From Aquabacterium olei (lineage in GTDB: Bacteria; Pseudomonadota; Gammaproteobacteria; Burkholderiales; Burkholderiaceae_C), in contig NZ_CP029210.1 of NCBI RefSeq assembly GCF_003100395.1, positions 806,001-870,000 on the forward strand: 64,000 nucleotides of DNA. Reading direction: 5' to 3'. A program made the translations under genes and the position numbers. Below, one piece after another: positions 528 through 60,707 of this stretch. The notes beneath the pieces are model-generated. The model saw only the letters and a program-made list of their open reading frames with translations. It was not told the DNA's origin and ran no database searches. Within the stretch, counting starts at the first letter, position 1. The number at the start of each line of letters is the position of its first letter.

Positions 528-541
528 GCAAACAGCGTGCC
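528..541 (-). promoter_or_regulatory. Sigma-54 promoter for cfa
   Basis: On the minus strand it reads GGCACGCTGTTTGC, an excellent -24/-12 match, with the -12 GC 52 bases before the start at 476. It lies in the 75-base gap after the glycosyltransferase stop. The same 14-mer recurs at 46359-46372. Confidence 0.85.
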
Positions 542-551
542 GGGCGCCGGC

Positions 552-1499
552 TCACCCCGCCACCTGCCTGAGCACATCCTGCCAGTCCGCCACGAAGCGG
601 TCGATGTGGAAGCGATCGTGGGCAGCCTGTCGGGCGCGTTCGCCCATGCGCCGGGCCTCCTTCGGGTCGCGGATCAGTTGCTGCATGCCCTCGATCAGGC
701 GCTCGGGCCGGGTGTCGATGAACCCATGGTGTCCGTCGCGGATCACGGTCACCAGTTCGGTGGTGGCCAGCCCGACGATGGGCATGCCGACCATCATGGC
801 CTCGATCACCGCCAGACCGAGGCTGGTGTAGCGGATGGGGTTGAAGAAGAAGCGGTGGGCCGCCATGACCTCGGGCAACTGCTGGTGCGTCACCTCGCCC
901 GCGCCCCCGAGGCGGTCGGCGCCCATGCCGACGAGCGTCAGGGGCAGGCGCGTGCTCGCCTGGCGGTAGATGTCCGAGCCGAGCCGCCGCCCACGTCGAT
1001 CGAGGTTGTTGACGACGACGAGGCCGGCTGCCATCTCGCCGTGATGGACGGCGTGGGCCAGCAGCTTCACACCGTGCTCCACCACCCGTACGGGTTGGTC
1101 GCCGTTGTCCCACATCAGCGCGTTGAAGGGCGTGCAGTGCACCAGCAGCGTCTCGCCATCCTGCACCCAGTGGCGCGTGTTGGTGGGGTGCTGCTGGGGC
1201 GGGTCGTGCTCGAGATAGATGCGCGGCAGGCGCCGCTGCGCCTCGCTCAGCAGCGTGTGCTGCTCCTGCTCGTAGGCCTCGCGCGACTGGAAGAGCACGA
1301 TGTCGAACGCCATGTCGCGCAACCGGTCGACGGGCGCGTCGTGCACGTTGTCGCCCCAGGGCAGCGTGCCGCTGCGGCCGCTGTGGTGGGTCGAACGCTC
1401 GGCATCGGCCACCAGGTAGAACTGATGAGGCACCTGACTGAGGTAGTACATGTAGTTGCCATGCACGTGCCAGGTCAGGATGCGCAAGGGGCGGTTCAT
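552..1499 (-). CDS. Glycosyltransferase, GT4-like (group 1)
   Basis: This 315-residue protein has the C-terminal group 1 glycosyltransferase pattern: a hydrophobic VVVNNLDRRGRR segment at the start of the donor domain, then FNPIRYTSLGLAVIEAMMVG and GLATTELVTVIRDG, the usual nucleotide-sugar binding region. The N-terminal half (LTWHVHGNYMYYLSQ) is the acceptor-side Rossmann fold. It is shorter than typical GT4 enzymes (350-400 residues). It is the last gene of a six-gene operon and follows the GT2 gene by 9 bases. It probably adds a sugar to a surface glycan; donor and acceptor are unknown. Confidence 0.88.
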   Translation of the reverse strand: MNRPLRILTWHVHGNYMYYLSQVPHQFYLVADAERSTHHSGRSGTLPWGDNVHDAPVDRLRDMAFDIVLFQSREAYEQEQHTLLSEAQRRLPRIYLEHDPPQQHPTNTRHWVQDGETLLVHCTPFNALMWDNGDQPVRVVEHGVKLLAHAVHHGEMAAGLVVVNNLDRRGRRLGSDIYRQASTRLPLTLVGMGADRLGGAGEVTHQQLPEVMAAHRFFFNPIRYTSLGLAVIEAMMVGMPIVGLATTELVTVIRDGHHGFIDTRPERLIEGMQQLIRDPKEARRMGERARQAAHDRFHIDRFVADWQDVLRQVAG

Positions 1500-1508
1500 C
1501 GGTGTGAC

Positions 1509-7026: not shown

Positions 7027-7040
7027 GCAATCGCCATGCC
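7027..7040 (-). promoter_or_regulatory. Sigma-54 promoter (proximal) for glycan operon
   Basis: The minus strand reads GGCATGGCGATTGC; the -12 GC is 29 bases before the start at 6998. It is the nearer of two elements with the same orientation. Confidence 0.85.
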
Positions 7041-7464: not shown

Positions 7465-7478
7465 GCAAGCCGCGGGCC
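7465..7478 (-). promoter_or_regulatory. Sigma-54 promoter for small acidic protein
   Basis: The minus strand reads GGCCCGCGGCTTGC, with TTGC perfect and the -24 block weaker (CCCG). The -12 GC is 47 bases before the ATG at 7418. The element lies in the 71-base gap after recQ. Confidence 0.65.
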
Positions 7479-10569: not shown

Positions 10570-10583
10570 GCAAGCAACGTGCC
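10570..10583 (-). promoter_or_regulatory. Sigma-54 promoter for DUF883-recQ operon
   Basis: The minus strand reads GGCACGTTGCTTGC, very close to the family consensus. The -12 GC is 53 bases before ATG 10517, in the gap behind the SDR gene stop. Confidence 0.87.
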
Positions 10584-11573: not shown

Positions 11574-11587
11574 GCAAGCGCCATGCC
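11574..11587 (-). promoter_or_regulatory. Sigma-54 promoter for stress SDR
   Basis: The minus strand reads GGCATGGCGCTTGC, 43 bases before ATG 11531. The identical 14-mer occurs at 51558-51571. Confidence 0.87.
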
Positions 11588-12193: not shown

Positions 12194-12207
12194 GCAACGT
12201 TTGTGCC
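12194..12207 (-). promoter_or_regulatory. Sigma-54 promoter for PEP-CTERM gene
   Basis: The minus strand reads GGCACAAACGTTGC, with both invariant dinucleotides and GGCAC/TTGC. The -12 GC is 58 bases before ATG 12136. Confidence 0.8.
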
Positions 12208-12750
12208 CCGCAGCAATTTGTTGCGTGCATGAAAGCGGCGTCCGGCGTTGCTTTCGTGACGGGTCGGGCATGCGATATGCCGTCATTTCCCTTCGTGCCT
12301 TCGGGAGATGCACCCCGTTTGATGCGATCAGGTGCCCTGCGGGTCCTGCATTTGCCGCACTTCTTCCGCAATGCGCGATCTGTCCGGATTAACCCGACGA
12401 TGGCGCCCCCGAATGTGTAAAAAGGCGAAACCAAACGCTTCCGGCGGTGCGTGTCCGGATTCACCATGCGGGTAGGTTGTCGACCCTGAATTCCCCCGAA
12501 ACCAGGGGGGTCAGAACCGGTGTCGGGCGGCCCCTGTGGGTAAATTTTGCCGGTTGCACCGGCCTCCCACGGCGGTTTTGACCGGCGAACAAGGGCGCAG
12601 CGCGGGCGCGGGCCTGCCCAACAACCCTTTCTGCTTCAGGGCTGCCGGCGCTTCCTGCCGGTCCAACTGTAAGCATGACAAAAGTGCGCATTGGCCGCTG
12701 CCGATGCGGCACCGCACAATGCCTTTCCAAACACACAAGGAGCGCGACCC
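12208..12750 (+). other. Long intergenic region upstream of NtrC-type regulator
   Basis: About 540 bases without a convincing gene, AT-richer than its surroundings. It holds a 15-base inverted repeat GGCATGCGATATGCC (12267-12281), two near-identical direct repeats starting TGTCCGGATT (12381-12394 and 12452-12465), a small CCCCC/GGGGG hairpin near 12492-12509, and the leader of the regulator with AGGAG before ATG 12751. I see no sigma-54 element correctly spaced toward the regulator, so it is probably read by another sigma factor. The repeats may be regulator binding sites (inference). Confidence 0.5.
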
Positions 12751-14151
<1,401 letters not shown>

Positions 14152-15536: not shown

Positions 15537-15550
15537 GCAAACCATGTGCC
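15537..15550 (-). promoter_or_regulatory. Sigma-54 promoter for receiver/transglutaminase unit
   Basis: The minus strand reads GGCACATGGTTTGC; the -12 GC is 62 bases before ATG 15475 (41 before ATG 15496). It is back to back with the plus-strand element at 15594. Confidence 0.8.
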
Positions 15551-15593: not shown

Positions 15594-15607
15594 GGCATCG
15601 GGATTGC
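15594..15607 (+). promoter_or_regulatory. Sigma-54 promoter for PRC-barrel gene
   Basis: Reads GGCATCGGGATTGC; the -12 GC is 60 bases before ATG 15667. The two opposed -24 elements are 43 bases apart. Confidence 0.8.
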
Positions 15608-17866: not shown

Positions 17867-17880
17867 GCACGTGGCGTGCC
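17867..17880 (-). promoter_or_regulatory. Probable sigma-54 promoter for DUF4398/OmpA unit
   Basis: The minus strand reads GGCACGCCACGTGC: perfect -24, -12 block GTGC instead of TTGC. The -12 GC is 42 bases before ATG 17825. Nearly the same sequence is at 59033-59046. Confidence 0.6.
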
Positions 17881-17918: not shown

Positions 17919-19952
17919 TTATGCCGGGCGGCGTTCCAGCTTGCCGGTGGAATCGGCCAGGGGTTGGAGGATCTCGAGCAACTGGTTCACGTCCACGGGC
18001 TTGGCCAGGTGGTGCGTGATGCCAGAGGCCCGGCTGCGATCCCGGTCGCTGTCCTGGTTCCAGCCCGTGATGGCGACCAACAGGGTATCGCGGGTCTGCG
18101 GGTGCTGGCGCAGTTCATGAGCCACCTCGTGGCCATTCAGGCCCGGCATGCCGATGTCGAGGATGACGACGTCCGGCGCCTGCGCCAGCGCGATGCCCAG
18201 CGCCTGCTCCCCATTGTGGACGACCGTGGTCTGGTGGCCCAGGCCTTCGAGGATCTGCGCGAGGCTGGTCGCGAAGTCCACGTTGTCATCCGCCACCAGC
18301 ACGTGCAGCCGGCCGGCACCTTCTGGCATGGGGGCCTCGGTGGGGGGGCGCGCTGGGGTGTCGGGCGCCATGCGCTGAGGGTCGGGGCAGCGCGGCAGCG
18401 TCACCGAGAACGCCGATCCCTGCTGCGGCCCGGCGCTGTGCACCGCGATGCGCCCGCCATGCAGCGCGGTGAGCTGCCGCGCAAGCGTGAGGCCCACACC
18501 CAGACCGGCGCGGCCGTGCTCGATGGGCGGCCCGCCCTGCACGAACATGTCGAACACGGCGCGCTGCATGTCGGCCGGGATGCCGATGCCGTTGTCCTCG
18601 ACGGTCACGGTCACCTCTTCCGCATCCATGTCGAGGGCCAGCCGGATCTGGCCGCCATCCGGCGTGTACTTCGCGGCATTGTTGAGCAGGTTGGCGAACA
18701 CCTGTGCCAGGCGGGTCGCGTCGGCCTCGATGTAGATGGGGCCGGGCGGCAGCGCCTGCTCGAAGGCATGTCGCCGGGTCTCCAGCATGGGCTGCGCAAT
18801 CTCGACGGCGTCGTTCAGCACCCTGAGCAGGTCGACCCGCTCGCGGTGCAGCAGCAACTTGCCCGTGGTGATGCGGGAGACATCCAGCAGGTCGTCGATG
18901 AGGCGCACCATCTGCCGCAGCTGCCGGCCCATGATGTCCAGCGCGCGCTGACGCAAGGCGGCATCCTGGTCGCCCGTGCGACGCAGGATCTCCGCGGCGT
19001 TGCTGATGGGGGCCAGCGGGTTGCGCAGCTCGTGGGCCAGCGTGGCGAGGAATTCGTCCTTCTTGCGCGCTGCGGTGCGCAGTGCTTCTTCGGCCTTGCG
19101 TCGCTCGGCCATTTCCACCGAAAGGTGATGGTTGCTCTGCTCGAGCGCCTGGGTGCGTGCGGCCACTTCGGCCAGCATGTCGTTGAAGGCATCGACCAGT
19201 TGCCCCACTTCATCCGACGAGGTGCGGGGCGCGCGCAGCGAGAAGTCGCGCTGGACCATGACGTCGCGCGCCACCTGGGCCACCCGCAGGATGGGCTCGG
19301 TCACGGCGCGCTGCAGTCGCGTGGTGAGCAGGGCCGCCGCGGCGGTGCTCGCGGCCATCACGCCCAGCAGGATGATGACGTAGTCACCCAGGCGCCCGGC
19401 CAGGTCATTGTCGGTGCGCAGGTAGAGCCAGCCCAGCAGTTCGTCGTTCTGCCGGATGGGGTGAAAGAGTTCGAGCCGGTCGCCACGCACCGCGAAGCCG
19501 GGATCGCCGGTGGTGAGCGGGATGTCGGTGGCCTGCTGGGGCGGGCGCAGGTAGGTCGCAAACAGTTCGCCCTTGCTGAGGTAGACGGCGGCCGTCGTGA
19601 TCTGCGGACGCAGTCGCAGCATGTGCAGGTTCTCGGCCGCGGCGCGCGTGTCCTTGAACGAGAGGGCGGCAGCCATGGCCTGGCCCACGATGTCGGCCTG
19701 CGTCTGCAGGTCGGCCTCGCGCGAGTGCCGGTAGGCGCGCTGCTCGTAGAACAGCAGTGCCGCTGCGCTGAGCAGCAGGGCCAGGCCGGTGGTGGACAGC
19801 ACGACGAGCATGACCTTGCCACGCAGCGTCGGTCCGGTGAAGTCGTCTGTGGCGGTCGCGCGTTGCTGGCCGTTGGCCAGGCGGTCGAGCACGGTGATCC
19901 ACCAGCGGGCCAGCCGCCGGCACGCCGGTGTGAAGGGCAGTCGGGCACCCAT
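17919..19952 (-). CDS. Hybrid sensor histidine kinase with CHASE8-like sensor
   Basis: 677 residues. Membrane segments near 46-68 and 190-211 flank a periplasmic domain (about 70-188) with ALSFKDTRAAAENLHML and ITTAAVYLSKGELFATYLRP, the CHASE8 pattern of YfiN-type proteins. Then HAMP (212-265), HisKA with H307 in FLATLAHELRNP, HATPase (NLLNNAAKYTPDGG, DNGIGIP, GLGVGLTLARQL) and a C-terminal receiver (VADDNVDFA, VVILDIGMPGLNG, LAKPVD). ATG 19952 has GGAGG upstream and overlaps the yfiR-like stop; GTG 19976 is an alternative. The CHASE8-HAMP front end with a kinase output instead of GGDEF is the notable point. Confidence 0.95.
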   Translation of the reverse strand: MGARLPFTPACRRLARWWITVLDRLANGQQRATATDDFTGPTLRGKVMLVVLSTTGLALLLSAAALLFYEQRAYRHSREADLQTQADIVGQAMAAALSFKDTRAAAENLHMLRLRPQITTAAVYLSKGELFATYLRPPQQATDIPLTTGDPGFAVRGDRLELFHPIRQNDELLGWLYLRTDNDLAGRLGDYVIILLGVMAASTAAAALLTTRLQRAVTEPILRVAQVARDVMVQRDFSLRAPRTSSDEVGQLVDAFNDMLAEVAARTQALEQSNHHLSVEMAERRKAEEALRTAARKKDEFLATLAHELRNPLAPISNAAEILRRTGDQDAALRQRALDIMGRQLRQMVRLIDDLLDVSRITTGKLLLHRERVDLLRVLNDAVEIAQPMLETRRHAFEQALPPGPIYIEADATRLAQVFANLLNNAAKYTPDGGQIRLALDMDAEEVTVTVEDNGIGIPADMQRAVFDMFVQGGPPIEHGRAGLGVGLTLARQLTALHGGRIAVHSAGPQQGSAFSVTLPRCPDPQRMAPDTPARPPTEAPMPEGAGRLHVLVADDNVDFATSLAQILEGLGHQTTVVHNGEQALGIALAQAPDVVILDIGMPGLNGHEVAHELRQHPQTRDTLLVAITGWNQDSDRDRSRASGITHHLAKPVDVNQLLEILQPLADSTGKLERRPA

Positions 19953-19956
19953 GGTG

Positions 19957-20565
19957 TCAACGTCCTCCGAGAACACGGTCGGCCAGGGCCAGCAGCCGTG
20001 AACTGACGGTGACGCCGGCCCGATCGGCGGCGATCAGCGAGGCCTCGAAGCGCAACTGCTCCTGCACGGTGATGAAGTTGAACAGGGCTCCGGCAGCCAG
20101 ACCATCGGGGTGCTCCGTCACCAGGAGCAGGGGCGCGGCCCGCGCCGCCCGCATGAGAGGGCTCTGCTGCAGGTCGACGCGACGGCCGATGTAGAGCAGG
20201 TGCACACCGAGAAGCGGGTCGCCTTCGTTGATCTGGCGGCGTACGACCGGCCGCTGGTGGCTCACGCGTTGCGCCACCAGGGGGCCCAGCGCCTGGTACA
20301 CCTCGTCGGCGCCGGCCACGGCCACCACCAGGGGCTGGCCCGGAGGCGGCAGCGTGGTGCCCGGGAACACCACATAGCCCAGAAAGCGCAGCAGGTGATC
20401 CGCGCGGGCTGCGTCGAGCGAGGCGAGCACCGGCTCGATGGTGGCAACGGCGGTCGCGGGCTCGCTGGCCCCACCGGCCAGCGCGACGGTGTGGCAGAGC
20501 ATCAGCGCCGTCAGGGCCCAGCAGGACAACGGGCCACGCCAGCCGCGGGCGGCCGCGGCCTTCAC
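19957..20565 (-). CDS. YfiR-family periplasmic protein (DUF4154)
   Basis: About 202 residues from GTG 20565, with an N-terminal hydrophobic signal (PLSCWALTALMLCHTVALAG) and a YfiR core: LLRFLGYVVFPG, PLVVAVAGADEVYQAL, LLGVHLLYIGRR, PLLLVTEHPDG, and GALFNFITVQEQLRFEASL. In Pseudomonas, YfiR is the periplasmic inhibitor of the CHASE8 diguanylate cyclase YfiN and is sequestered by the OmpA-like YfiB. Here it overlaps a CHASE8-like kinase by a few bases. The start is uncertain: no clear ATG before the signal, and a TTG near 20675 is also possible. Confidence 0.85.
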   Translation of the reverse strand: MKAAAARGWRGPLSCWALTALMLCHTVALAGGASEPATAVATIEPVLASLDAARADHLLRFLGYVVFPGTTLPPPGQPLVVAVAGADEVYQALGPLVAQRVSHQRPVVRRQINEGDPLLGVHLLYIGRRVDLQQSPLMRAARAAPLLLVTEHPDGLAAGALFNFITVQEQLRFEASLIAADRAGVTVSSRLLALADRVLGGR

Positions 20566-20790: not shown

Positions 20791-20809
20791 CGCGGTAAGG
20801 CTTACCGCG
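20791..20809. promoter_or_regulatory. Perfect inverted repeat, candidate regulator operator
   Basis: CGCGGTAAG and CTTACCGCG flank one base. The right arm ends on the first G of the -24 element at 20809. The first 15 bases recur at 43044-43058, about 70 bases upstream of another sigma-54 element. Operator function is inferred. Confidence 0.5.
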
Positions 20810-20822
20810 GCATGCGGCTTGC
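20809..20822 (+). promoter_or_regulatory. Sigma-54 promoter for AsmA-like gene
   Basis: Reads GGCATGCGGCTTGC; the -12 GC is 49 bases before ATG 20871. It abuts the inverted repeat. Confidence 0.83.
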
Positions 20823-38595: not shown

Positions 38596-38609
38596 GGCAT
38601 GAGGCTTGC
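38596..38609 (+). promoter_or_regulatory. Sigma-54 promoter for glsB-like gene
   Basis: Reads GGCATGAGGCTTGC; the -12 GC is 83 bases before ATG 38692. Confidence 0.83.
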
Positions 38610-38691: not shown

Positions 38692-38964
38692 ATGGTCAGT
38701 TTGATTGTGTGGTTGGTGGTGGGAGGCATCGTCGGTTGGCTGGCGAGCCTGATCATGAAGACCGACGCCCAGCAGGGCGTTCTGCTCAACGTCGTGGTGG
38801 GCCTCGTGGGCGCCGCGCTGGCAGGTTGGCTCATCTCACCCCTCGTGGGCGTGCCGAGCATCAACGACAACGTCTTCAGCATCGGCTCCGTGCTGGTGTC
38901 ACTGGTCGGTGCAGTGATCCTGCTGGGCATCGTGGGGCTGATCCGCGGCCGGCCGCGTGCGTGA
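38692..38964 (+). CDS. GlsB/YeaQ/YmgE-family stress membrane protein
   Basis: 90 residues, three hydrophobic segments with the family start VSLIVWLVVGGIVGWLASLI, MKTDAQQGVLLNVVVGLVGA and [19 protein letters not shown]. Transglycosylase-associated-protein family; RpoS-type stress genes in enterobacteria. AAGGA precedes ATG 38692. Its last 66 bases overlap, on the opposite strand, the 3' end of the kinase gene at 38899-41976. Confidence 0.94.
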   Translation: MVSLIVWLVVGGIVGWLASLIMKTDAQQGVLLNVVVGLVGAALAGWLISPLVGVPSINDNVFSIGSVLVSLVGAVILLGIVGLIRGRPRA

Positions 38965-41900
38965 CGCCATGGCCAGCAGGCGCTCGATGCGTGCGGCCGT
39001 GACGGGCTTGACCAGATGCCGGTCGAACCCGGCCGCACGTGAGCGGGCCAGGTCGTCGGCCCGGCCATAGCCGGACACCGCGACCAGCCAGCCGCCATAG
39101 CCTTGCGCCCGCAGGGTGGCGGCCACCTCAAGGCCCCCCAGGCCAGGCAGCCCGATGTCGACCAGTGCGACATCGGGCTGTGTTTCGTGGATCAGGGCAA
39201 TGCCTTCAGCGCCGCTGGTGGCCAGCCGCACTTCGTGGCGATCCAGAGCCAGCATCGAGCGCAAGGCCTCGCCCGCATCGTCGTTGTCTTCGACGACCAC
39301 CACACGCCGCGGTGTGATGGGTCCCTCGATGGCAGCCCGCTCTTCCGCTGCGGGGGCCTTGCACGCGGGCAGGCGGGCGGTGAAGGTGGCGCCGTGTCCG
39401 GGGCCGTCGCTCTGCACGGACACCGTGCCGCCGTGGTGCTCCACCAGGCGCTTGACCAGCGTCAGGCCGATGCCGAGCCCGCCCTGCTGGCGGTCAAGCG
39501 TGCGCTCGCCTTGCACGAACAGGTCGAAGACCTTGCTCTGCAGCTCGGGCGTGAGTCCGGCGCCGGTGTCCTGCACGGTGATGACCGCCTCCTCGCCCAC
39601 CGGCTCCACCGTCAGGCTCACCCGGCCGCCGGCCGGCGTGTACTTCAGGGCATTGACCAGCAGGTTGGTGAGCACCTGTTCCATGCGGCTGGCGTCGGCC
39701 TGCACCCACACGGGCTCCAGCCGGGCTTCGAACGCGTGCTGCGCCAGCTGGCCGGCCAGCTCCAGGGTGTGGCGCACCCGGTGAGCCAGCAGATCAAGTC
39801 GGATGGCGCCGGTCTGCTGCTCGTGCCGGCCGGCCAGCACGCTGGCCACATCCAGCAGGTCGTCCATGAGACGCCCGAGGTGGGCCGCCTGGCGCGCGAT
39901 GATCTGGCGTGCACGCCGGGCCAGATCCTCCTGTGTGCCGGCGCGGTTCAGCACCTCGCATCCGGCCGAGATCGCGCCCAGCGGGTTGCGCAACTCGTGC
40001 CCCAGCATGGCCAGGAACTCGTCCTTGTTGCGGTTGGCTTCCTCGGCTTCGCGACGGGCCGCCGTCTCGCGCTCCACCAGTGCCATGCGGGCCGACTCCA
40101 TGGCCTTCATGGTGGTGATGTCGACGATCACGCCGCTGACCTGCTCGGGGCGGCCTTGCTCGTCCCAGGTGAAACGCAGGCGGGCGCCCAGCCACCGCGT
40201 CTCGTGCTCGGGCGTGTCGTGGCGGAACTCCAGCATGTGTGCGTTGGTGCGGCCGGCGGCCGCGGCCCGCAAGGCGTGCACCACACGCCGCCGGTCTTCG
40301 GGATGGACGCAGCGCAGGCAGCGGCGCGCGGGCCCACGCAGTTCGGACAGCGGCAGATCCAGCAGCCGCGAAAAGCCGGTGCTCCAATGCACCACCCGGG
40401 CACGCCGGCTGTGCTGGAAGAAGCCGACGTGGCCGGCCGCCTGGGCCAGCTCCACCAGCTGCTGGTTGGCGCGCAGCCCGCGCTCGGCCGCCGCCAGGGA
40501 GGCTTCGGCCTGCTGACGGTCGGTGATGTCGGTGAAGCTCGCGATGGCGCCGCGCGGCAGTCCCCGGCCGTCGAACAGCGGCACCGCATGGGCCACGATG
40601 TCCCGCACGGCACCATGAGGAGGGCGCAATTGCAGCTCGACGTCCTTCTGTGTCCAGCCGGTGCGGGCGGCCTTCTGGAGCGGCAGGGCGTCGGCGGCCA
40701 CGGCCTCGCCGTGCGCGGTGATCGGGCAGTCGGGCCAGCCGCTGCGGTCGGCCGCACGCTCGTCGGTCGCAGGGGGCGTGGGCTCGCCCAGCATGCGAGC
40801 CAGCGCCGGGTTGCGCAGCACGTGGCCACAGTGACGCTCCTGCGTCATGGCCAGGCCGATCGGGCTGCTGCGAAACAGCGTCTCGAACTCGGCGGCCTGA
40901 CGCTGCAGTCGGTCGTGCGCGATGTCGCGTTGTGCCTCTTCACGCTGCAGCGCCTGCTCCAGCAGGATCAGTTCGCGCACGGTGCTCGGCTCGCCCCGGC
41001 GCTGCGGCCCGTGCAGGGCGAGTGCCCGCAGCGGGCCCGTGACCCGGCTGGCCACGCCCATGGCGAGCAGCAGCCCGGCAGCCAGCGACCCGAGCCCGAG
41101 CAGCAGCGCCATGCCGACCGAACGCCAGTGGGCGCGGTCGATGGGATCGGCCGGCTCGCCGATCACCACGCCCCAGTTCGACGGCTCGATGCGGTACCAG
41201 GCGCCGTAGGCTTCGCCGCCCTCCAGCAGCCCGATGCGGCCCGTGCCGATCGGGCCCGCCTGCACATGGGCCTGGGTCAGCGCCGGCAGGGGGCGGGCCA
41301 CCACGTCGGGGCCGCCGAGGTTGCGGGCCACCAGCTTGAGCTCCCGATCGAAGATGGACAGGAACGCGTTCTGAGGCAGCGTGGAGGTCGTGATGAGGCG
41401 CTGCCAGCTCGAGGACGGAATCCAGGCGCCGAGTGCAAACGCGAGACGGCCGTGAACATGCACGGGCACCAGCACGCCGGTGGTGGCGGTGCCATCGGGG
41501 CCGGTCGTGAGGTTGGTGACCACGGGTTCGCCGGTCTGGCGCAGGCGGGTGAGGGCGGCGAGGTCACTGAGCCGGCCCAATGGCCGTCCGGCCGGCTGGT
41601 GGGTGTTGAAAACGACCTGGCCATCGAGCTCGGCCAGAAACACGCTGCTCCAGCTCTGCCGCGGCGTGCGCAAGGCCGTCATCGACGAGAAGACGCCCGC
41701 GAGGTCGCCCTCCTGCAGCAGCTCGGACAGCGCCAGAACCTGCAGGGCCTCTGCCGAGGAGGCCAGCTCGCGGTCGACCGTGAGCGCGAAAGCCCGCGCG
41801 GCGCGCGCGAGGTCGGCCTTCATCTGTGCCTGACCTTCCAGCGCTTGCTGCGATACCAGCCACGTTGCCAGCATCGTCATGGGCACTGTGGCAAGCAGCG

Positions 41901-41976
41901 TCACCGCCAGAACATGCGCCCGAAGCGAGGCCGTCGACCAGCGCAGGCGCGACCACGCATCGCCTTTTTCCAACAC
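38899..41976 (-). CDS. Hybrid sensor histidine kinase (periplasmic sensor, two PAS)
   Basis: 1025 residues: membrane segments about 22-42 and 288-308; periplasmic double-Cache-like domain (43-285, [45 protein letters not shown]); PAS (about 360-490), PAS (500-625); HisKA with H660 in MLGHELRNP; HATPase ([26 protein letters not shown]); receiver ([32 protein letters not shown]). It starts at GTG 41976 behind GAGG. No sigma-54 element was found before it. It is built like the kinase at 48070-51084 and likely arose by duplication. Confidence 0.95.
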
Positions 41977-42960: not shown

Positions 42961-42974
42961 GCAATCGCCGTACC
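42961..42974 (-). promoter_or_regulatory. Sigma-54 promoter for second DUF4142 gene
   Basis: The minus strand reads GGTACGGCGATTGC; the -12 GC is 80 bases before ATG 42881. About 70 bases upstream lies CGCGGTAAGGCTTAC, shared with 20791. Confidence 0.78.
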
Positions 42975-46358: not shown

Positions 46359-46372
46359 GCAAACAGCGTGCC
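46359..46372 (-). promoter_or_regulatory. Sigma-54 promoter for GT4-deacetylase-fumC operon
   Basis: The minus strand reads GGCACGCTGTTTGC, identical to the cfa promoter; 35 bases before ATG 46324, 9 bases from the opposed element at 46382. Confidence 0.87.
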
Positions 46373-46381: not shown

Positions 46382-46395
46382 GGCATGCTGCCTGC
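46382..46395 (+). promoter_or_regulatory. Sigma-54 promoter for DUF2383 gene
   Basis: Reads GGCATGCTGCCTGC (CTGC at -12); 62 bases before ATG 46457. Confidence 0.65.
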
Positions 46396-48007: not shown

Positions 48008-48021
48008 GCAAACTGCATGCC
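48008..48021 (-). promoter_or_regulatory. Sigma-54 promoter for exported PRC-barrel gene
   Basis: The minus strand reads GGCATGCAGTTTGC; 51 bases before ATG 47957. It is nearly self-complementary; read on the plus strand the -12 would be ATGC, so I do not call a divergent promoter. Confidence 0.83.
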
Positions 48022-48069: not shown

Positions 48070-51000
48070 ATGCCCATGAAACCGCTGCCCCTTCAGGGAC
48101 TGAATCGGCCTCGCGGCCTGCGCCTGCGGTGGCCGGTTGCGTCGCTGCGCACCTACCTGCTCGCCGTGATCGTGGTGGCCACTGTGCCGCTGGCTGCGCT
48201 CACGTCCTGGCTGATGGCGCAGGAAATCATGGCGGTACGCCATCAGATGACGCTGGGTTTGACCCAGACGGCCGGGTCACTGGCGCTGATGGTGGAACGC
48301 GAGCAGGTGTCGTCGATCGATGCGCTGACCATCCTGTCGCATGCCACGACCTTGCGCGAGGGCGATCTGGCCAGCTTCCACATGCGGCTGGCCCGCAAGC
48401 CGCTGGTGCGCCCGACGTGGCGTCGCGTGGTGCTCACAAGCCCCGAAGGCGTGGTGCTGTTGCGCAGCGACGAGGCCTATGCGCCGGCCATGGCACAGGC
48501 CCACGGCGAGCCGCAGCCGCTGCCCGATGGGGTGCTCCCGCCTCCGCGCATCAGCGGACTCAAGGGCGTGGCCGGCGCCGACCTGTTCTCGCGCATTGCC
48601 GTGCCGGTCGAAGTGCATGGTCAACTGGCCTACTGGCTGGCGGCCGACATCCATGCGTCTGCCTGGCAGAGCCTGATCGGCCATGTGCAGGCGCCTCAGG
48701 GCGGCTTCGTGACGGTGTTTGACGAAGGCTATCGCATCGTGGCGCGCTCGCTGCATCCCGAGCGCTTTCTCGGCCAGGTGCTGCCCGAAGACGGCCGGCG
48801 ACACATGGGCGTTCGGTCGGCGGGCTTCCAGAAAAGCAGCCTGCTCGAGGGCGGGGACACCTACGTGGCGTGGCAACGCATCCCGATGTCGCAATGGGGC
48901 ATCGGCGTGGGGGTGGCCGCTGCGCCGCTGGACCGCAGCAACATCATGGCGATCTCGATGGCCCTGCTGGCCGGCGCCCTCTCCCTGATGGCCGGCATCG
49001 GCCTGTCGCTGTTCGTGGTCCGCCGGGTGAACCAGCCTCTGCATGCACTGGCCACGGGCGGCGCTTCTGCGGTGCCGGGTGACATCGCGGTGCGGGAGAT
49101 CGGCCTGCTGCGCGATGCGATGAAGGCCGCCGAGGCCCAGCGCGAGCAGGCCCGCGAGCGGCTGGAGGCCAAGGCGGCCGAGTTCGAGACCCTCTTCAAC
49201 ACCAGCCCCATCGGCCTGTCGATCACGCAGGACCCGGAATGCCGGATGGTGCTGCGCAACCCGGCCAAGGTCGCGATGTTCGGCATCCGTGATGGCGAAC
49301 CCGCCCGCTACGAGATGCTGCAGGACGGCGAGGTGCTGCCCACGGCACGGCACCCACTGCAGCGTGCGGCACGTGGCGAGACGGTCTGGAACCAGGAAGT
49401 GGAAGTGCGCCACCCGGATGGCCGTGTGCTGCGCCTGCTGGCCTTTGCCGTGCCGCTGCTGGATGGCCATGGCCATGCGCGCGGTGCCATTGCCACGTAT
49501 GTCGACATCACCGAGCGCATGCTGGCGCAGGAACGCCTGATGCGCGCGCGCACGCGGCTGCAGGACAGCCAGCACCTGGTGGAGCTGGCGCAGGAGGCAG
49601 GCGATGTGGGCTTCTTCGACCACGTGGTGGCCGCCGACACGGTGACCATGACGTCGGGCCTGGCCCGCCTTTTCGGGCTGGAGCGGCGCGCGATCGAGAC
49701 CCACTGGGCGGGCTGGCTGCGCCATGTGCATCCGGACGACGCGCGCGCACTCGAGGCGTTGCTGCAGCAGGCCTGGCGCGACCAGCTCGAGCAGGTCACC
49801 TTCAAGTTCCGCACCGCCGGGCAGCTCGACATCGAACGCTGGCTGTCGAGCCGCATGGTCATCCTCTATACGCCCGAAGGCGTGCCCACCCGGATGATCG
49901 GTGTGATGGTCGATGTGACGGTGCAGCAGCAGATCGAGCAAGAGCGTGCCCGGCTCATCGCGCAGGAGCACCAGGCGCGGCTGGAGGCGGAGCGCGCCAA
50001 CCGCGCCAAGGACGAGTTCCTCGCCATGCTGGGCCACGAGTTGCGCAATCCGCTGAGCGCCATCTCGGCGGCGATCGAGGTGCTCAACCGCATCAGCTCG
50101 CAGGACGAGCAGGCGGTGCGTGTGCGCACCATCATCACGCGCCAGACCCGGCACCTCGCTCGGCTCATGGACGACCTCATGGACGTGGCGCGCGTGATTG
50201 CCGGCAAGATTCACCTGTCGCGTCAGCCCGTCAACCTCGGCTCGATGGTGCACCGCCTGGTCAGCACCATGCAGATGGCCGGGCTGTTGCAGGATCATCC
50301 GGTGAGCCTGGAGGTCGAGGAGGTGTGGGTCGACGGCGATGCCATGCGCCTCGAGCAGATCGTCAACAACCTCGTCACGAATGCCGTCAAGTACAGCGCG
50401 TCGGACAAGCCCATCCATGTGCGGGTGGTGCGGGCCGACGGGCGTGCCAGGCTGGAAGTGATCGACCAGGGGCCGGGCATCCCCGAGGCCCTGCTGCCCC
50501 ACATTTTCGACCTCTTCGTGCAGGGCGAGCGGACGCTGGACCGCCGCCAGGGCGGGCTCGGGATCGGCCTCACCCTGGTGCGGCGGCTGGCAGAGCTGCA
50601 TGACGGTGAGGTCGGCGTGCAGAGCGGCCCCGGCGGCAGCGTGTTCGCCGTGATGCTGCCGGCCATCGCCCCGGTTCAGCCCGACCGGGTCGAGCGCACC
50701 GGAGAGGTGCCTGCGCCGCGCACCGTGGTGCTGGTGGAAGACAACCCGGATGCGCGCGAGGCCCTCACCACGATGCTGACCCTGCAGGGTCATGAGGTGC
50801 ATGGCGAGGACAACGGCAAGGATGGCCTTGAGCGCCTGCTGGCGCAGCGGCCTCATCTGGCGCTGGTGGACATCGGTCTGCCGGGGCTGACGGGCTACGA
50901 GGTGGCCCGGCAGGCGCGCGAACGGGGGCACACGGGCTGGATGATCGCGGTATCGGGGTATGGGCAGCCTCACGACGTGCAGCAGGCGCTGGAGGCGGGG

Positions 51001-51084
51001 TTCGATGCCCACATGGTCAAGCCCATTGACAGCGATGCCCTGACCGACTGGCTGGCGCGCCCGCCCCGGGATGCAGGCATGTGA
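48070..51084 (+). CDS. Hybrid sensor histidine kinase (periplasmic sensor, two PAS)
   Basis: 1004 residues: membrane segments about 28-50 and 293-317; periplasmic double-Cache-like domain (51-290, VVLTSPEGVVLLRSDE, GQLAYWLAADIHASAW, VTVFDEGYRIVARSL); PAS (370-490), PAS (500-620); HisKA with H656 in MLGHELRNP; HATPase ([27 protein letters not shown]); receiver ([32 protein letters not shown]). Architecture and motifs match the kinase at 38899-41976. Start ATG 48070 chosen over GTG 48046. No separate HPt protein is seen in the window. Confidence 0.95.
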   Translation: MPMKPLPLQGLNRPRGLRLRWPVASLRTYLLAVIVVATVPLAALTSWLMAQEIMAVRHQMTLGLTQTAGSLALMVEREQVSSIDALTILSHATTLREGDLASFHMRLARKPLVRPTWRRVVLTSPEGVVLLRSDEAYAPAMAQAHGEPQPLPDGVLPPPRISGLKGVAGADLFSRIAVPVEVHGQLAYWLAADIHASAWQSLIGHVQAPQGGFVTVFDEGYRIVARSLHPERFLGQVLPEDGRRHMGVRSAGFQKSSLLEGGDTYVAWQRIPMSQWGIGVGVAAAPLDRSNIMAISMALLAGALSLMAGIGLSLFVVRRVNQPLHALATGGASAVPGDIAVREIGLLRDAMKAAEAQREQARERLEAKAAEFETLFNTSPIGLSITQDPECRMVLRNPAKVAMFGIRDGEPARYEMLQDGEVLPTARHPLQRAARGETVWNQEVEVRHPDGRVLRLLAFAVPLLDGHGHARGAIATYVDITERMLAQERLMRARTRLQDSQHLVELAQEAGDVGFFDHVVAADTVTMTSGLARLFGLERRAIETHWAGWLRHVHPDDARALEALLQQAWRDQLEQVTFKFRTAGQLDIERWLSSRMVILYTPEGVPTRMIGVMVDVTVQQQIEQERARLIAQEHQARLEAERANRAKDEFLAMLGHELRNPLSAISAAIEVLNRISSQDEQAVRVRTIITRQTRHLARLMDDLMDVARVIAGKIHLSRQPVNLGSMVHRLVSTMQMAGLLQDHPVSLEVEEVWVDGDAMRLEQIVNNLVTNAVKYSASDKPIHVRVVRADGRARLEVIDQGPGIPEALLPHIFDLFVQGERTLDRRQGGLGIGLTLVRRLAELHDGEVGVQSGPGGSVFAVMLPAIAPVQPDRVERTGEVPAPRTVVLVEDNPDAREALTTMLTLQGHEVHGEDNGKDGLERLLAQRPHLALVDIGLPGLTGYEVARQARERGHTGWMIAVSGYGQPHDVQQALEAGFDAHMVKPIDSDALTDWLARPPRDAGM

Positions 51085-51089
51085 CTTGC
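51076..51089 (+). promoter_or_regulatory. Sigma-54 promoter overlapping kinase stop codon
   Basis: Reads GGCATGTGACTTGC and contains the kinase stop; 50 bases before ATG 51139. A CTGGTGC/GCACCAG hairpin (51094-51122) follows in the leader. Confidence 0.82.
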
Positions 51090-51557: not shown

Positions 51558-51571
51558 GCAAGCGCCATGCC
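51558..51571 (-). promoter_or_regulatory. Sigma-54 promoter for 72-residue protein
   Basis: The minus strand reads GGCATGGCGCTTGC, 35 bases before ATG 51523; identical to the stress SDR promoter. Opposed to 51608 with 36 bases between. Confidence 0.85.
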
Positions 51572-51607: not shown

Positions 51608-51621
51608 GGCATGGTGCTTGC
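51608..51621 (+). promoter_or_regulatory. Sigma-54 promoter for hldA
   Basis: Reads GGCATGGTGCTTGC; 44 bases before ATG 51665. An imperfect CCTTCGGG/CCCGAAAGG hairpin (about 51624-51653) lies in the leader. Confidence 0.86.
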
Positions 51622-54160: not shown

Positions 54161-54174
54161 GCAAGCAGCGTGCC
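54161..54174 (-). promoter_or_regulatory. Sigma-54 promoter for barrel/hldC unit
   Basis: The minus strand reads GGCACGCTGCTTGC; 74 bases before ATG 54087, just after the gmhA stop. Confidence 0.87.
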
Positions 54175-54805: not shown

Positions 54806-55590
<785 letters not shown>

Positions 55591-55610: not shown

Positions 55611-55624
55611 GCAAGTGGCATGCC
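55611..55624 (-). promoter_or_regulatory. Sigma-54 promoter for small protein/gmhA unit
   Basis: The minus strand reads GGCATGCCACTTGC, 36 bases before ATG 55575. Opposed to 55648, 23 bases between. Confidence 0.85.
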
Positions 55625-55647: not shown

Positions 55648-55661
55648 GGCATGCCGCTTGC
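55648..55661 (+). promoter_or_regulatory. Sigma-54 promoter for Gly/Asp-rich protein
   Basis: Reads GGCATGCCGCTTGC; 57 bases before ATG 55718. Confidence 0.85.
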
Positions 55662-59058: not shown

Positions 59059-59072
59059 GGAACGCCGCTTGC
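59059..59072 (+). promoter_or_regulatory. Sigma-54 promoter for LmbE/GT2 unit
   Basis: Reads GGAACGCCGCTTGC; 51 bases before ATG 59123. 12 bases from the opposed element at 59033. Confidence 0.78.
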
Positions 59073-59122
59073 CACCCGGATGCATCACGTCACCTCCGAG
59101 TCGTTTCGTTGCAGCCCCCGCC

Positions 59123-59800
59123 ATGGTCATCCTCTCTCCCCACCCCGACGACGCCGTCTTCTCGTGCGGGCACCTGCTTGCCAACCGCCCCGACAGCACG
59201 GTCGTCACCGTGTTTGCCGGGCTGCCCGAGGAGGACAGCCCCCTGACGGATTGGGACGAGCGTTGCGGCTTCATCAGCGGCCGCGTCGCCATGCAGACCC
59301 GCCGCGACGAAGACGCCCAGGCGCTCGGGCTGCTCGGCGTGACCCCGATGTGGCTGGACTTTCTCGACGCGCAGTACGGCAGCAGCCCTTCGCCCCATGA
59401 ACTCGGTGAGGCCCTGCTGGACACCCTGCGCACGCTGGATGACCCGCCGGTGGTGCTCCCGATGGGCCTGTTTCACTCCGACCACCTTCTGGTGCACGAA
59501 GCCGCGTTGTGGGCCTTGCGGCGCAGCGTGACGAACTGGACCGTGCACCTGTACGAAGACATCCCCTATCGCCGCCTGCCCGGCCTGCTTCAGCAGCGCT
59601 TGCAGACGCTGGCCACACTGGGCCTGGAGGCCACCCCCTCGACCATGGTGGTCAGCCCCGTCGAGCGCCTGAAGGCCCGAGCGGTGTCGAGTTACGTCAG
59701 CCAGCTGCGGGCGCTGGGCGCTGAGGGGCTGTCGGACCTGACACGGCCCGAACGGCTGTGGGACCTGCAGGGTGCGTGTGGAGGCGTCGATGGCAGCTGA
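59123..59800 (+). CDS. LmbE/PIG-L family N-acetylglucosaminyl deacetylase
   Basis: 225 residues: VILSPHPDDAVFSCGHLLAN (the PHPDD zinc motif), TVVTVFAGLPE, RRDEDAQALGLLGV, PMGLFHSDHLLVHEA (the HxDH ligand). Zinc deacetylase of sugar N-acetyl groups, as in mycothiol and GPI pathways. No start other than ATG 59123 fits; ribosome site weak. Its 3' end overlaps the GT2 gene. Confidence 0.92.
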   Translation: MVILSPHPDDAVFSCGHLLANRPDSTVVTVFAGLPEEDSPLTDWDERCGFISGRVAMQTRRDEDAQALGLLGVTPMWLDFLDAQYGSSPSPHELGEALLDTLRTLDDPPVVLPMGLFHSDHLLVHEAALWALRRSVTNWTVHLYEDIPYRRLPGLLQQRLQTLATLGLEATPSTMVVSPVERLKARAVSSYVSQLRALGAEGLSDLTRPERLWDLQGACGGVDGS

Positions 59801-60707
59801 GGCGCTGGTGACCGTGGTGGTGCTGACACATCAGCGTTCGGCGGAATTGCGGCGCACCCTGGCGCATCTGCGCCGTCTGCCGGAGCGCCCGGCCATCGTC
59901 GTGGTCGACAGCGGCTCGTGCACGCGCGATGCCCGGGCGAACCGGGAGGCTGCCGCCGAGGTCGGGGCCCTGCTGGTGCGCGTGACGCGCCACCTCGGGG
60001 CCGCGGCCCGCAACGCCGGGGTGGCGCAGGTCCGCACGCCCTATGTGGCCTTCTGCGACGACGACACGTGGTGGGCCCCCGGTGCCCTGCAGCGGGCCGT
60101 GGAGGTCATGGCCTCGTGTCCGTCGGTGGGGCTCATCAACGGCCAGGTGCGCGTCGGACCCGAGCAGCGGCCCGACCCCCGGTGCACACGCATGGCGCAG
60201 AGCCCGCTCGATCGCATCGGGCTGCCTGGCCCGGCCATCCTGTCCTTCGTGGCCGGGGCCGTGGTGATGCGCACGCAGGCCTTCAAGGAGGCCGGCGGCT
60301 ATGAGCCCCGCCTCTTTCACGGAGCCGAAGAGCGGTTGATGGGCCTGGACCTTGCCACGCTGGGTTGGGACATGGTCTACGTCCCGGATGCGGTGGTGCA
60401 CCACCATCCCGCGCCACCCCGGCAGTCTGGGGAGCGTCGCCTTCTCGCGGTTCGTAACCGCCTGTGGATTGCCGCCATGCGTCTGCCGTGGCCGGATGCA
60501 TTTCGCGAAGTGCGGCACATCTTGCGGCAAGCCAGCGCGCAAGGTGTGGGGGCGTCGGTGCTGTGGCGCGCGGTCACCGGCCTGCCTTGGGCTTTGTGGC
60601 ATCGACAGCGTGTTCCCGCCGACGTGGTGCGCATGCACCGCCTTCTTCGTGGCGACGCCGACCCCAGGCACGCCGTTTGCCCGAAAGGCATGCCGCGTGT
60701 GGGGTGA
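59790..60707 (+). CDS. Glycosyltransferase family 2
   Basis: 305 residues: VTVVVLTHQRSAELRRTLAH, AIVVVDSGSCTRDARANR, AARNAGVAQVRTPYVAFCDD followed by DTWWAPG for the metal site, then LINGQVRVGP and FVAGAVVMRTQAFKEAGGYE. GT2. ATG 59790 has GGAGG upstream and overlaps the LmbE stop by 11 bases; GTG 59772 is possible. It contains the otsA promoter in its 3' end. Confidence 0.92.
   Translation: MAAEALVTVVVLTHQRSAELRRTLAHLRRLPERPAIVVVDSGSCTRDARANREAAAEVGALLVRVTRHLGAAARNAGVAQVRTPYVAFCDDDTWWAPGALQRAVEVMASCPSVGLINGQVRVGPEQRPDPRCTRMAQSPLDRIGLPGPAILSFVAGAVVMRTQAFKEAGGYEPRLFHGAEERLMGLDLATLGWDMVYVPDAVVHHHPAPPRQSGERRLLAVRNRLWIAAMRLPWPDAFREVRHILRQASAQGVGASVLWRAVTGLPWALWHRQRVPADVVRMHRLLRGDADPRHAVCPKGMPRVG
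60667..60680 (+). promoter_or_regulatory. Sigma-54 promoter for otsA-otsB
   Basis: Reads GGCACGCCGTTTGC, near perfect; inside the end of the GT2 gene and 73 bases before GTG 60753. Confidence 0.86.

What the first reader, a model, noticed from the sequence alone, without database searches (positions are those of the whole stretch)
528..60680. A dense sigma-54 regulon: 35 candidate -24/-12 promoters in 60 kb
Elements of form GG-N10-GC, mostly GGCATG or GGCACG plus N4 plus TTGC, occur before most transcription units on both strands, nearly all 12-85 bases from a start codon and pointing at it. My rough estimate for GGCA(T/C)G-N4-TTGC at two-thirds GC is fewer than one by chance on both strands; I count 17, plus about 18 near variants. 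A sigma-54 gene and an NtrC-type activator lie in the same window. I know of no described locus with this promoter density.
Basis: partly seen in the sequence, partly recalled or inferred. Interest (0 to 1): 0.95.

Follow-up and report, generated by a model that had tools for sequence, protein, structure and literature searches.

The report
Second sigma-54's private stress regulon
In what is likely an Aquabacterium genome, about three quarters of the transcription units in a 64-kb stretch carry a sigma-54-type promoter sequence, mostly of one unusual kind, likely read by a second sigma-54 factor encoded in their midst and predicted to switch on stress-survival and cell-surface genes together, which would make it a large stress regulon with its own promoter code.

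Summary
GGCAYG-N4-TTGC occurs 17 times in the window (0.92 expected) and 70 times in the 4.26-Mb genome. A matrix trained on other genomes finds an element before 29 of 38 transcription units here, 12 of 268 in control stretches.

The rpoN in the window is a second sigma-54 (RpoN2), split from the housekeeping RpoN1 by a fully supported branch. RpoN2 and the activator at 12751-14151 were found in the same 16 of 37 same-genus genomes. Eighty RpoN2 loci hold 293 elements, 21.7 expected.

The element is a variant: C at -11 (442 of 551), seldom T at -26 (51 of 551), while ammonium-transporter promoters keep T and A/T. rpoN2's own promoter has a purine at -11 (62 of 66 sites), which suggests a relay from RpoN1 to RpoN2.

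Many targets look like stress and surface genes: OtsA-like, TreZ, catalase, CsbD, hemerythrin, BON, glycosyltransferases. Specialised sigma-54 paralogues are known (Rhodobacter, Bradyrhizobium); my searches listed no paper on this family, its stress island or its -11 pattern. Transcription is untested.

The parts
24375..25829 (-). rpoN2: second sigma-54 factor (484 aa), AID, core-binding and DNA-binding domains
   Evidence: Pfam PF00309, PF04963, PF04552; one of two sigma-54 genes in the genome; split from RpoN1 with support 100/100
12751..14151 (+). response-regulator-type sigma-54 activator (bEBP), receiver + AAA+ (GSFTGA) + Fis-type HTH; no element in front of it
   Evidence: Pfam, sequence, same 16 of 37 genomes as RpoN2, no element
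25872..25885 (-). rpoN2's own -24/-12 element, GGCATGGATGTTGC followed by G (not C)
528..541 (-). -24/-12 element before the gene at 3-476
7027..7040 (-). -24/-12 element before the six-gene unit 552-6998 with glycosyltransferases and a carbamoyltransferase (second site at 7067-7080)
7465..7478 (-). -24/-12 element (GGCCCG variant) before 7089-7418
10570..10583 (-). -24/-12 element before DUF883-like gene 10206-10517 (Pfam hit below cut-off)
11574..11587 (-). -24/-12 element before short-chain dehydrogenase 10662-11531
12194..12207 (-). -24/-12 element before PEP-CTERM protein gene 11636-12136 (PEP-CTERM just over its cut-off)
15537..15550 (-). -24/-12 element before single-domain response regulator and transglutaminase-like genes 14176-15475
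15594..15607 (+). -24/-12 element before PRC-barrel gene 15754-16092
17867..17880 (-). weak -24/-12 element before DUF4398 gene 17385-17717
20809..20822 (+). -24/-12 element before AsmA-like gene 20958-23003; a palindrome (20790-20810) overlaps its edge
23010..23023 (+). -24/-12 element before the Gln/Gly-rich repeat protein gene 23093-24325
26557..26570 (-). -24/-12 element before 26165-26533
26587..26600 (+). -24/-12 element (T at -11) before hemerythrin-domain gene 26658-27239
   Evidence: element before 33 of 37 homologues
33288..33301 (+). -24/-12 element before BON-domain gene 33358-33678
   Evidence: element before 20 of 21 homologues
34681..34694 (-). -24/-12 element (T at -11) before BrkB-family gene 33727-34638
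   Evidence: element before 8 of 27 homologues
34702..34715 (+). -24/-12 element before AI-2E-family transporter gene 34784-35947
   Evidence: element before 7 of 27 homologues
35963..35976 (+). -24/-12 element (CTGC variant) 46 bp before the alternative start 36023 of a DUF4142 gene
37903..37916 (+). -24/-12 element (T at -11) before 37954-38556
38596..38609 (+). -24/-12 element before small open frame 38692-38964 (transglycosylase-associated family)
42961..42974 (-). -24/-12 element before DUF4142 gene 42078-42881
   Evidence: element before 3 of 17 homologues
46359..46372 (-). -24/-12 element before the unit 43069-46324 (glycosyltransferase first)
46382..46395 (+). -24/-12 element (CTGC variant) before DUF2383 (PA2169 family) and CBS genes 46457-47409
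   Evidence: element before 33 of 41 DUF2383 homologues
48008..48021 (-). -24/-12 element before PRC-barrel gene 47466-47957
51076..51089 (+). -24/-12 element before small open frame 51139-51384 (81 aa, AGGAGG ribosome site, no family)
51558..51571 (-). -24/-12 element before 51305-51523
51608..51621 (+). -24/-12 element before heptose-7-phosphate kinase gene 51665-52630
   Evidence: element before 0 of 2 homologues
54161..54174 (-). -24/-12 element before outer-membrane barrel protein and cytidylyltransferase-like genes 52650-54087
55611..55624 (-). -24/-12 element before 54187-55575 (includes a SIS-domain gene, phosphoheptose-isomerase-like)
55648..55661 (+). -24/-12 element before 55718-56125
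59059..59072 (+). -24/-12 element before PIG-L deacetylase-like and glycosyltransferase genes 59123-60707
60667..60680 (+). -24/-12 element before OtsA-like trehalose-phosphate synthase gene 60801-63200 (inside the end of the previous gene)
   Evidence: element before 1 of 9 homologues
60510..60530 (.). candidate activator site (palindrome score 21.5), about 147 bp upstream of the otsA element
   Evidence: one of 7 sites of score >=12 in the window, so single sites may be chance
12535..12555 (.). candidate activator site (palindrome score 15.0) in the intergenic region before the activator gene
   Evidence: one of 7 sites of score >=12 in the window
17919..20565 (-). hybrid histidine kinase (CHASE8) and YfiR-like gene; no element in front
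38899..41976 (-). hybrid histidine kinase (PAS, receiver; dCache below cut-off); no element in front
48070..51084 (+). hybrid histidine kinase (PAS, receiver); no element above threshold in front

Best explanation
The window is the predicted core of a clustered sigma-54 regulon: 29 of its 38 transcription units carry a -24/-12 element, 25 of them with C at -11, which is likely read by the second sigma-54 factor RpoN2 encoded in their midst and likely fired by the response-regulator activator encoded nearby, so that stress-survival and cell-surface genes would be switched on together. Shown in sequence: the elements, their orientation and enrichment, the second sigma-54, the co-occurring activator, a promoter class different from that of ammonium-transporter promoters, and the abundance of the same class around rpoN2 in other Burkholderiales. 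Inferred: that RpoN2 (not RpoN1) reads the C(-11) class. The inference rests on its linkage to the class and on fixed substitutions in its DNA-reading parts (N393 in the helix-turn-helix, T466 and Q470 in the RpoN box) and in activator-facing region I. Inferred: the hybrid histidine kinases without elements (17919, 38899, 48070) feed phosphate to the activator's receiver. Inferred, weaker: rpoN2 itself is transcribed from a different class of promoter (purine at -11, often with an upstream palindrome TTnCGGYAAnnnTTRCCGnAA), probably by RpoN1, giving a sigma-54 to sigma-54 relay.
For: Enrichment in window versus shuffles, genome and controls. Two rpoN genes; RpoN2 and RpoN1 on two sides of one branch, 100/100. 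RpoN2 and activator in the same 16 of 37 same-genus genomes, none found with one only (Fisher 7.8e-11). In 36 of 88 blocks around rpoN2 an activator homologue lies 0-27 genes away, 12 times exactly one gene away (three genomes appear twice). C-type elements per Mb 5.05 median with RpoN2 versus 3.25 without (p 1.2e-5; reversed control not raised). In 80 RpoN2 loci 293 elements versus 21.7 expected, 78 of 80 with at least one, C at -11 in 200 of 293, T at -26 in 24 of 293. Selection blind to the flanks: C at -11 in 442 of 551 other promoters, 2 of 66 at rpoN2's own (p 2.8e-37). Ammonium-transporter loci: T at -26 in 24 of 29, A or T at -11 in 25 of 29. Homologues keep the element elsewhere: hemerythrin 33 of 37, BON 20 of 21, CBS 19 of 22, DUF2383 33 of 41; activator only 4 of 39. 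Precedent: -11 matters for RpoN1/RpoN2 choice in Rhodobacter (PMC11999139 passages).
Against: No transcript start, binding or mutant data. Some targets do not keep the element in homologues: OtsA-like 1 of 9, DUF4142 (42078) 3 of 17, AI-2E 7 of 27, BrkB 8 of 27. No common activator site was found upstream of the bulk of the promoters; the palindrome is common only at rpoN2's own and divergent promoters (46 of 64, training set) and in 25 of 444 others versus 9 of 449 controls, and its strict form is rarer than the reversed control in the 37 same-genus genomes (40 against 76). The window's own rpoN2 lacks a good palindrome upstream. One genome (G031) shows RpoN2 but no RpoN1 hit, against a strict relay unless the assembly has a gap. 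Three window elements besides rpoN2's have T at -11. The 293 and 551 sites are not phylogenetically independent. The 80 named loci were found with patterns holding RpoN2 residues R19, V24, T466 and Q470, so these are favoured there by construction; the same-genus set was found by whole-protein search. For most genomes one search scored only 27 first-look candidates. RpoN1 might read both classes.
Confidence: 0.77

Rival explanations
1. One undifferentiated sigma-54 system: RpoN1 and RpoN2 are interchangeable and either reads all elements; C at -11 is a mere effect of high GC or of common ancestry of the promoters.
For: Core GG-N10-GC is shared by both classes; the two proteins are 41% identical and share many invariant residues; the -11 test is correlative.
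Against: Ammonium-transporter promoters of these bacteria keep A/T at -11 and T at -26; rpoN2's own promoter in the same loci is not C (2 of 66 versus 442 of 551), so GC content does not explain it; C-type counts follow RpoN2 presence.
Confidence: 0.15
2. RpoN2 reads its own promoter too (plain autoregulation) and the purine at -11 there tunes strength rather than marking RpoN1 control.
For: A genome with RpoN2 and no RpoN1 hit (G031, locus L118) keeps the A(-11) element before rpoN2.
Against: The own promoter differs from the others in spacer and at -11 and often carries an upstream palindrome that most others lack.
Confidence: 0.35
3. RpoN2 replaced RpoS: in a genus without RpoS the sigma-54 paralogue took over the general stress regulon.
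For: 0 of 37 same-genus genomes have RpoS over the cut-off, though one (G010) has a hit just under it, 362.7 against 378.7; targets include catalase, OtsA-like, TreZ, CsbD, BON and transglycosylase-associated genes, typical RpoS targets elsewhere (recalled).
Against: 31 of 38 other RpoN2 genomes tested do have RpoS, promoter density near rpoN2 does not differ with RpoS (p 0.88, 7 against 31 loci), and 21 of 37 genomes of the genus show no RpoN2 either.
Confidence: 0.2
4. The elements are a repeated DNA motif without promoter function (for example a protein-binding or structural repeat).
For: No transcription data are held.
Against: Orientation and distance to start codons, strong sites almost all outside coding sequence, presence upstream of homologues in other genera and association with rpoN2.
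Confidence: 0.03

Closest known systems
Rhodobacter (Cereibacter) sphaeroides RpoN2 with FleQ/FleT and the fla1 locus (PMC7277832, PMC11999139; passages read)
   Same: A specialised sigma-54 paralogue encoded inside the roughly 56.6-kb cluster it controls, with its own activators; promoter position -11 helps to separate RpoN1 and RpoN2 promoters.
   Different: Flagellar genes, alphaproteobacterium; whether the two RpoN2 are of one lineage was not tested. Here no flagellar family was found among the 60 window proteins scanned and many targets look like stress and surface genes.
Bradyrhizobium sp. DOA9 RpoNp (PMC13207237, passages read)
   Same: Second sigma-54 tied to stress adaptation, with a shifted promoter consensus (the base before GG changes from T to C).
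   Different: Plasmid-borne, 22 predicted targets, and its other change is before the GC, not after it.
Aquincola tertiaricarbonis RpoN1 and the PEP-CTERM gene pepA (PMC9850573, passages read)
   Same: Related bacterium (kinship recalled) with four rpoN paralogues; a PEP-CTERM gene has a -24/-12 promoter, as does 11636-12136 here.
   Different: One target studied; the printed motif (TGGCAC...CTGCTT) has T after GC, not C; whether that RpoN1 belongs to this clade was not tested.
Ralstonia solanacearum rpoN2 (PMC4371752, start of abstract in the listing only)
   Same: Second sigma-54 of a member of the Burkholderiales, not required for the traits named in the title.
   Different: Not among the 25 best plasmid hits shown (207 more records not listed); all 232 plasmid records matched at under 60% identity. 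Not compared directly.
RpoS general stress regulon
   Same: Overlapping target types (catalase, trehalose, CsbD, BON; the comparison is recalled).
   Different: Sigma-54 needs an ATP-driven activator; this genome has no RpoS over the cut-off.

Membership tests
sigma-54 (RpoN) | Activator-interacting, core-binding and DNA-binding domains | tested here: met
   PF00309, PF04963, PF04552 all over cut-off
sigma-54 (RpoN) | RpoN box ARRTVAKYR | tested here: met
   Present with one change, ARRTVTKYR; A to T in 35 of 35 RpoN2 and 0 of 27 RpoN1 (about 20 of the 35 came through a search pattern holding this T)
sigma-54-dependent activator (bEBP) | AAA+ domain with GAFTGA-type loop, receiver, HTH | tested here: met
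   PF00158, PF00072, PF02954; GSFTGA
PEP-CTERM response regulator PrsR (TIGR02915) | Score over the curated cut-off | tested here: not met
   349.1 against 502.6
NtrC (TIGR01818) | Score over the curated cut-off | tested here: not met
   395.6 against 558.6
sigma-54 regulon | -24/-12 elements correctly oriented before genes, above chance | tested here: met
   29 of 38 units versus 12 of 268 control
sigma-54 regulon | Enhancer (activator-binding) sites upstream of the promoters | tested here: inconclusive
   Palindrome common at rpoN2's own promoters only; none common to the rest
sigma-54 regulon | Transcription lost without sigma-54 and activator | not testable with these tools
   Needs mutants and RNA
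Rhodobacter-type fla1 sigma-54 locus | Flagellar genes | tested here: not met
   No flagellar family among the 60 window proteins scanned
RpoS general stress response | RpoS sigma factor | tested here: not met
   TIGR02394 best hit 279.4 against cut-off 378.7 in this genome; 0 of 37 over the cut-off in the genus

The most novel reading that the evidence does not exclude
A two-storey sigma-54 system with a one-base promoter code: RpoN1 reads a purine(-11) promoter to make RpoN2, and RpoN2 with its own activator reads C(-11) promoters of a whole stress and envelope regulon, an ATP-gated general stress response that in Aquabacterium carries catalase and trehalose genes without any RpoS.
Probability: 0.4. 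Interest if true: 0.9.

Novelty: new variant of a known kind. Interest (0 to 1): 0.8.

Why it matters
General stress regulons are known under RpoS, SigB and EcfG (recalled). A large one under a sigma-54 paralogue, whose firing needs ATP and probably a phosphorylated activator, would be a different logic: promoters held closed until a signal arrives, then fired together. The comparison of two promoter classes in the same loci, with 442 of 551 against 2 of 66 at one base, offers natural material for the open question of how sigma-54 paralogues tell promoters apart, and names residues to test. The loci fetched (358 candidates, 80 kept) include strains of cultivated genera such as Rubrivivax, Roseateles, Hydrogenophaga and Azohydromonas, so it can be tested in the laboratory.

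Tried and rejected
RpoN2 as a plain replacement of RpoS: rejected as a general rule, because 31 of 38 RpoN2 genomes tested have RpoS and promoter density does not differ.

A shared enhancer upstream of all promoters: looked for with gapped words in the window (top signal is the ribosome-binding site), over 508 promoters, and over the 444 that are not rpoN2's own or divergent from it (no coherent motif). The palindrome came from rpoN2's own promoters; in the 37 same-genus genomes its strict form occurs 40 times against 76 for the reversed control.

The activator as PrsR or NtrC: rejected by cut-offs. NF009118 as a marker of RpoN2: rejected, RpoN1 also passes its cut-off. A recent plasmid origin of RpoN2: no plasmid record above 60% identity. 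Orphan elements as small-RNA promoters: both have small open frames behind them. Terminator and sigma-70 scans there gave nothing useful. Rfam: no family in the window at gathering scores.
Full report
WHAT WAS CLAIMED AND WHAT IS THERE. The 17 are there; dinucleotide shuffles give 0.92 on average and 4 at most. The window is C1:806001-870000 of a 4,256,308-base genome in two contigs, which holds 70 such elements in all, against 8 for the pattern read backwards. So 17 of 70 lie in 1.5% of the genome (binomial 3.8e-16).

To avoid judging the window by itself I trained a weight matrix on 77 RpoN2 loci of other genomes, leaving out the three nearest; other loci labelled Aquabacterium stayed in. 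It finds 27 sites of score 13 or more in the window, 1.7 in shuffles and 2.56 per 64 kb in 800 kb of the same genome; part of that control lies in the flanks and in a second-site region, which makes it conservative. With the same matrix softened, 30 window sites of score 11 or more are intergenic and within 250 bp of a start codon, against 16 in 540 kb of remote control. By transcription unit: 29 of 38 against 12 of 268 (my own simple gene caller). Of the 29, 25 have C at -11; rpoN2's has G and three have T.

Two exact elements had no called gene behind them (38596 and 51076). Each precedes a small open frame that my caller had missed: a 90-residue transglycosylase-associated protein at 38692-38964 and an 81-residue frame at 51139-51384 with an AGGAGG ribosome site and no family. 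The nine units without an element are the activator, three hybrid histidine kinases (one with a YfiR-like gene), a RecQ-helicase unit, an OmpA/DUF4398 gene, a four-gene unit at 27353-33267, the DUF4142/topoisomerase unit with its called start at 36401, and an ABC-transporter gene. rpoN2 and a single-domain response regulator are inside the set.

EXTENT. In the flanks the elements continue to about C1 781.7 kb on the left and 871.4 kb on the right, a cluster of about 90 kb. A second group lies at 2.010-2.0385 Mb, in a run of trehalose and glycogen genes: TreZ (TIGR02402 over cut-off; its element is 341 bp before my called start, but the profile match begins at position 75, so the true start is probably upstream), a gene that looks like glgB by eye (element at 35 bp; no family call), TreS-maltokinase and GlgX (only weak sites inside preceding genes), and a CBS-domain gene. 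Single intergenic C-type elements precede a CsbD-like gene (37 bp), a catalase gene (231 bp; Pfam catalase, best NCBIfam model HPII at 757 against a cut-off of 1102 on a protein cut at the locus end), a similar gene on the second contig (233 bp; similar by eye) and a GlgX-like gene there (69 bp; by eye). For such sites I looked at 33 of the 53 outside the window (13, 20) and at others only in the stretches. EgtB at C1 801881-803056 (element at 154 bp) and a mechanosensitive-channel gene at 870050-871168 (45 bp) also carry elements.

THE SIGMA FACTOR. The genome has two sigma-54 genes, at C1:271 kb and in the window. On a 62-sequence tree the window type (RpoN2, 35 sequences) and the rest (RpoN1, 27) are split by one branch with 100/100 support; the tree tool warns of long branches. 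RpoN2 differs by residues fixed or nearly so: Q14, R19, V24, S31 and F34 in region I, N393 in the helix-turn-helix, S411/R412, and T466 and Q470 in the RpoN box, besides others. The named sequences among the 35 (about 20) came through a search using patterns that contain R19, V24, T466 and Q470, so for those the four positions are not independent evidence; the others (same-genus genomes including this one, and G057) were found by whole-protein search. That region I meets the activator and the -12 fork is recalled; that the first helix-turn-helix recognises the -12 element and the RpoN box the -24 element is stated in PMC3162934 (passages).

THE ACTIVATOR. 12751-14151 encodes receiver, AAA+ with GSFTGA, and a Fis-type HTH. 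It is not over the cut-off of any of the 25 best named families shown, including NtrC and the PEP-CTERM regulator. Among 37 same-genus genomes RpoN2 (at least 52% identity) and this activator (E at most 1e-100) were found in exactly the same 16 (Fisher 7.8e-11). Some genomes are incomplete (G014 at 53%), and for most genomes only 27 first-look candidates for the activator were scored. Outside the genus G057 has both, and G041 and G058 have the activator with RpoN copies of only 43-44% identity. In 36 of 88 RpoN2 blocks an activator homologue (53-95% identity) lies 0 to 27 genes from rpoN2, 12 times exactly one (three genomes are counted twice there; most blocks reach only 10 kb to each side).

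THE PROMOTER CLASS. In 29 window sites the base before GG is never T and the base after TTGC is C in 26. In 80 named RpoN2 loci (1.54 Mb): 293 core elements against 21.7 expected, at least one in 78 of 80 loci, C after in 200, A or T in 49, T before in 24. With a selection that ignores both flanks, and ten duplicate or nearest loci dropped, 551 promoters other than rpoN2's have C at -11 in 442 and T at -26 in 51; rpoN2's own have A 25, G 37, C 2, T 2 out of 66 sites (three blocks give two sites; the two C are the weaker of two sites) and T at -26 in 19 of 66 (p 2.8e-37, not corrected for relatedness).

As a control for the classical class I took the best core site in the 1.5 kb upstream of 33 ammonium-transporter genes from the relatives' set (30 best-scoring loci, many from other families, plus three more of this genome): 29 reach the threshold, T at -26 in 24, A or T at -11 in 25, C in 3 (no position filter, so a few are probably chance). 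The classical pattern TGGCAYG-N4-TTGCW occurs once in this genome, inside a gene. C-type elements per Mb are higher with RpoN2 (median 5.05, n 16) than without (3.25, n 21; p 1.2e-5); the reversed control is not raised (0.60 against 0.91), and the classical pattern is rarer with RpoN2 (0.57 against 0.87 per Mb, p 0.005).

CONSERVED TARGETS. Homologues of window genes near rpoN2 elsewhere keep an element: hemerythrin 33 of 37, BON 20 of 21, CBS 19 of 22, DUF2383 33 of 41, DUF883-like 19 of 26, single receiver 17 of 19, PRC-barrel 8 of 8 and 7 of 8, AsmA-like 18 of 21; rpoN2 itself 65 of 86; the activator 4 of 39 (eight genomes are counted twice). Others do not: OtsA-like 1 of 9, DUF4142 3 of 17, AI-2E transporter 7 of 27, BrkB 8 of 27, heptose kinase 0 of 2. 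Many window genes have few homologues near rpoN2 elsewhere, so the cargo varies.

HOW IT LIKELY WORKS. Shown: two sigma-54 groups, two promoter classes, linkage of the second class to the second group and to one activator. Inferred: an envelope or stress signal through the hybrid kinases phosphorylates the activator; it drives RpoN2 polymerase waiting at the C(-11) promoters; hemerythrin, four-helix, BON, PRC-barrel, trehalose, catalase and glycan-making proteins are then made together. Weaker: RpoN1 makes RpoN2, since rpoN2's promoter is of another class and often carries an upstream palindrome (46 of 64 own or divergent promoters in the training set, 25 of 444 others, 9 of 449 control upstreams). 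Against this, G031 has RpoN2 with no RpoN1 hit, and the window's own rpoN2 has no good palindrome within about 400 bp. How the other promoters are reached without a common enhancer is unexplained; activation from solution is one option (known for some activators, recalled).

RPOS. No genome of the genus (0 of 37) reaches the RpoS cut-off, though G010 has a hit just under it (362.7 against 378.7); 11 of 24 from other families do. Of 38 RpoN2-bearing named genomes tested, 31 have RpoS (completeness not given there), and element density near rpoN2 does not depend on it (p 0.88). So RpoN2 is not simply a substitute; in Aquabacterium it may carry more of the load.

WHAT IS KNOWN. Specialised sigma-54 paralogues with promoter choice involving -11 are known in Rhodobacter sphaeroides, with rpoN2 inside the fla1 cluster (passages of PMC11999139 and PMC7277832; statement also in PMC3162934). 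A stress-leaning second sigma-54 with a T-to-C change before GG was reported for Bradyrhizobium DOA9 (passages). Aquincola has four rpoN paralogues and a sigma-54-dependent PEP-CTERM gene (passages). A recent comparison of sigma-54 regulons (PMC12316311, passages) has no occurrence of 'trehalose', 'general stress' or 'Burkholderiales' in its main text. In the open-licence library my searches listed, among the papers shown, none on this RpoN2 family or on a clustered sigma-54 stress regulon in Burkholderiales; several lists were capped, and most subscription papers are not held. Hence new variant of a known kind.

Noticed in passing
window 56139-58967: ABC transporter (membrane and ATPase domains) fused to a C-terminal response-regulator receiver domain, a combination that struck me as unusual.
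   Followed up: no
window 23093-24325: Very Gln/Gly-rich repeat protein without any Pfam or NCBIfam hit, with a strong element in front.
   Followed up: partly
window 51665-55575 and 4255-4911: Separate heptose kinase, cytidylyltransferase-like, phosphoheptose-isomerase-like and heptose-bisphosphatase-like genes within the regulon, as for a second heptose sugar route.
   Followed up: partly
same-genus genomes G000-G036: None of 37 genomes has RpoS over the TIGR02394 cut-off (G010 just under it); 21 of them show no RpoN2 either.
   Followed up: yes
G031 / locus L118: A 99% complete genome with RpoN2 as its only sigma-54 hit; its rpoN2 promoter keeps A at -11.
   Followed up: partly
L256 and L260: A catalase gene and a gene similar to it by eye, one on each contig of this genome, each preceded by a C-type element about 230 bp before the called start.
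   Followed up: partly
window 34681-34715, 26557-26600, 46359-46395, 55611-55661: Head-to-head elements with 7 to 23 bp between them, leaving no room for enhancer sites between divergent promoters.
   Followed up: no
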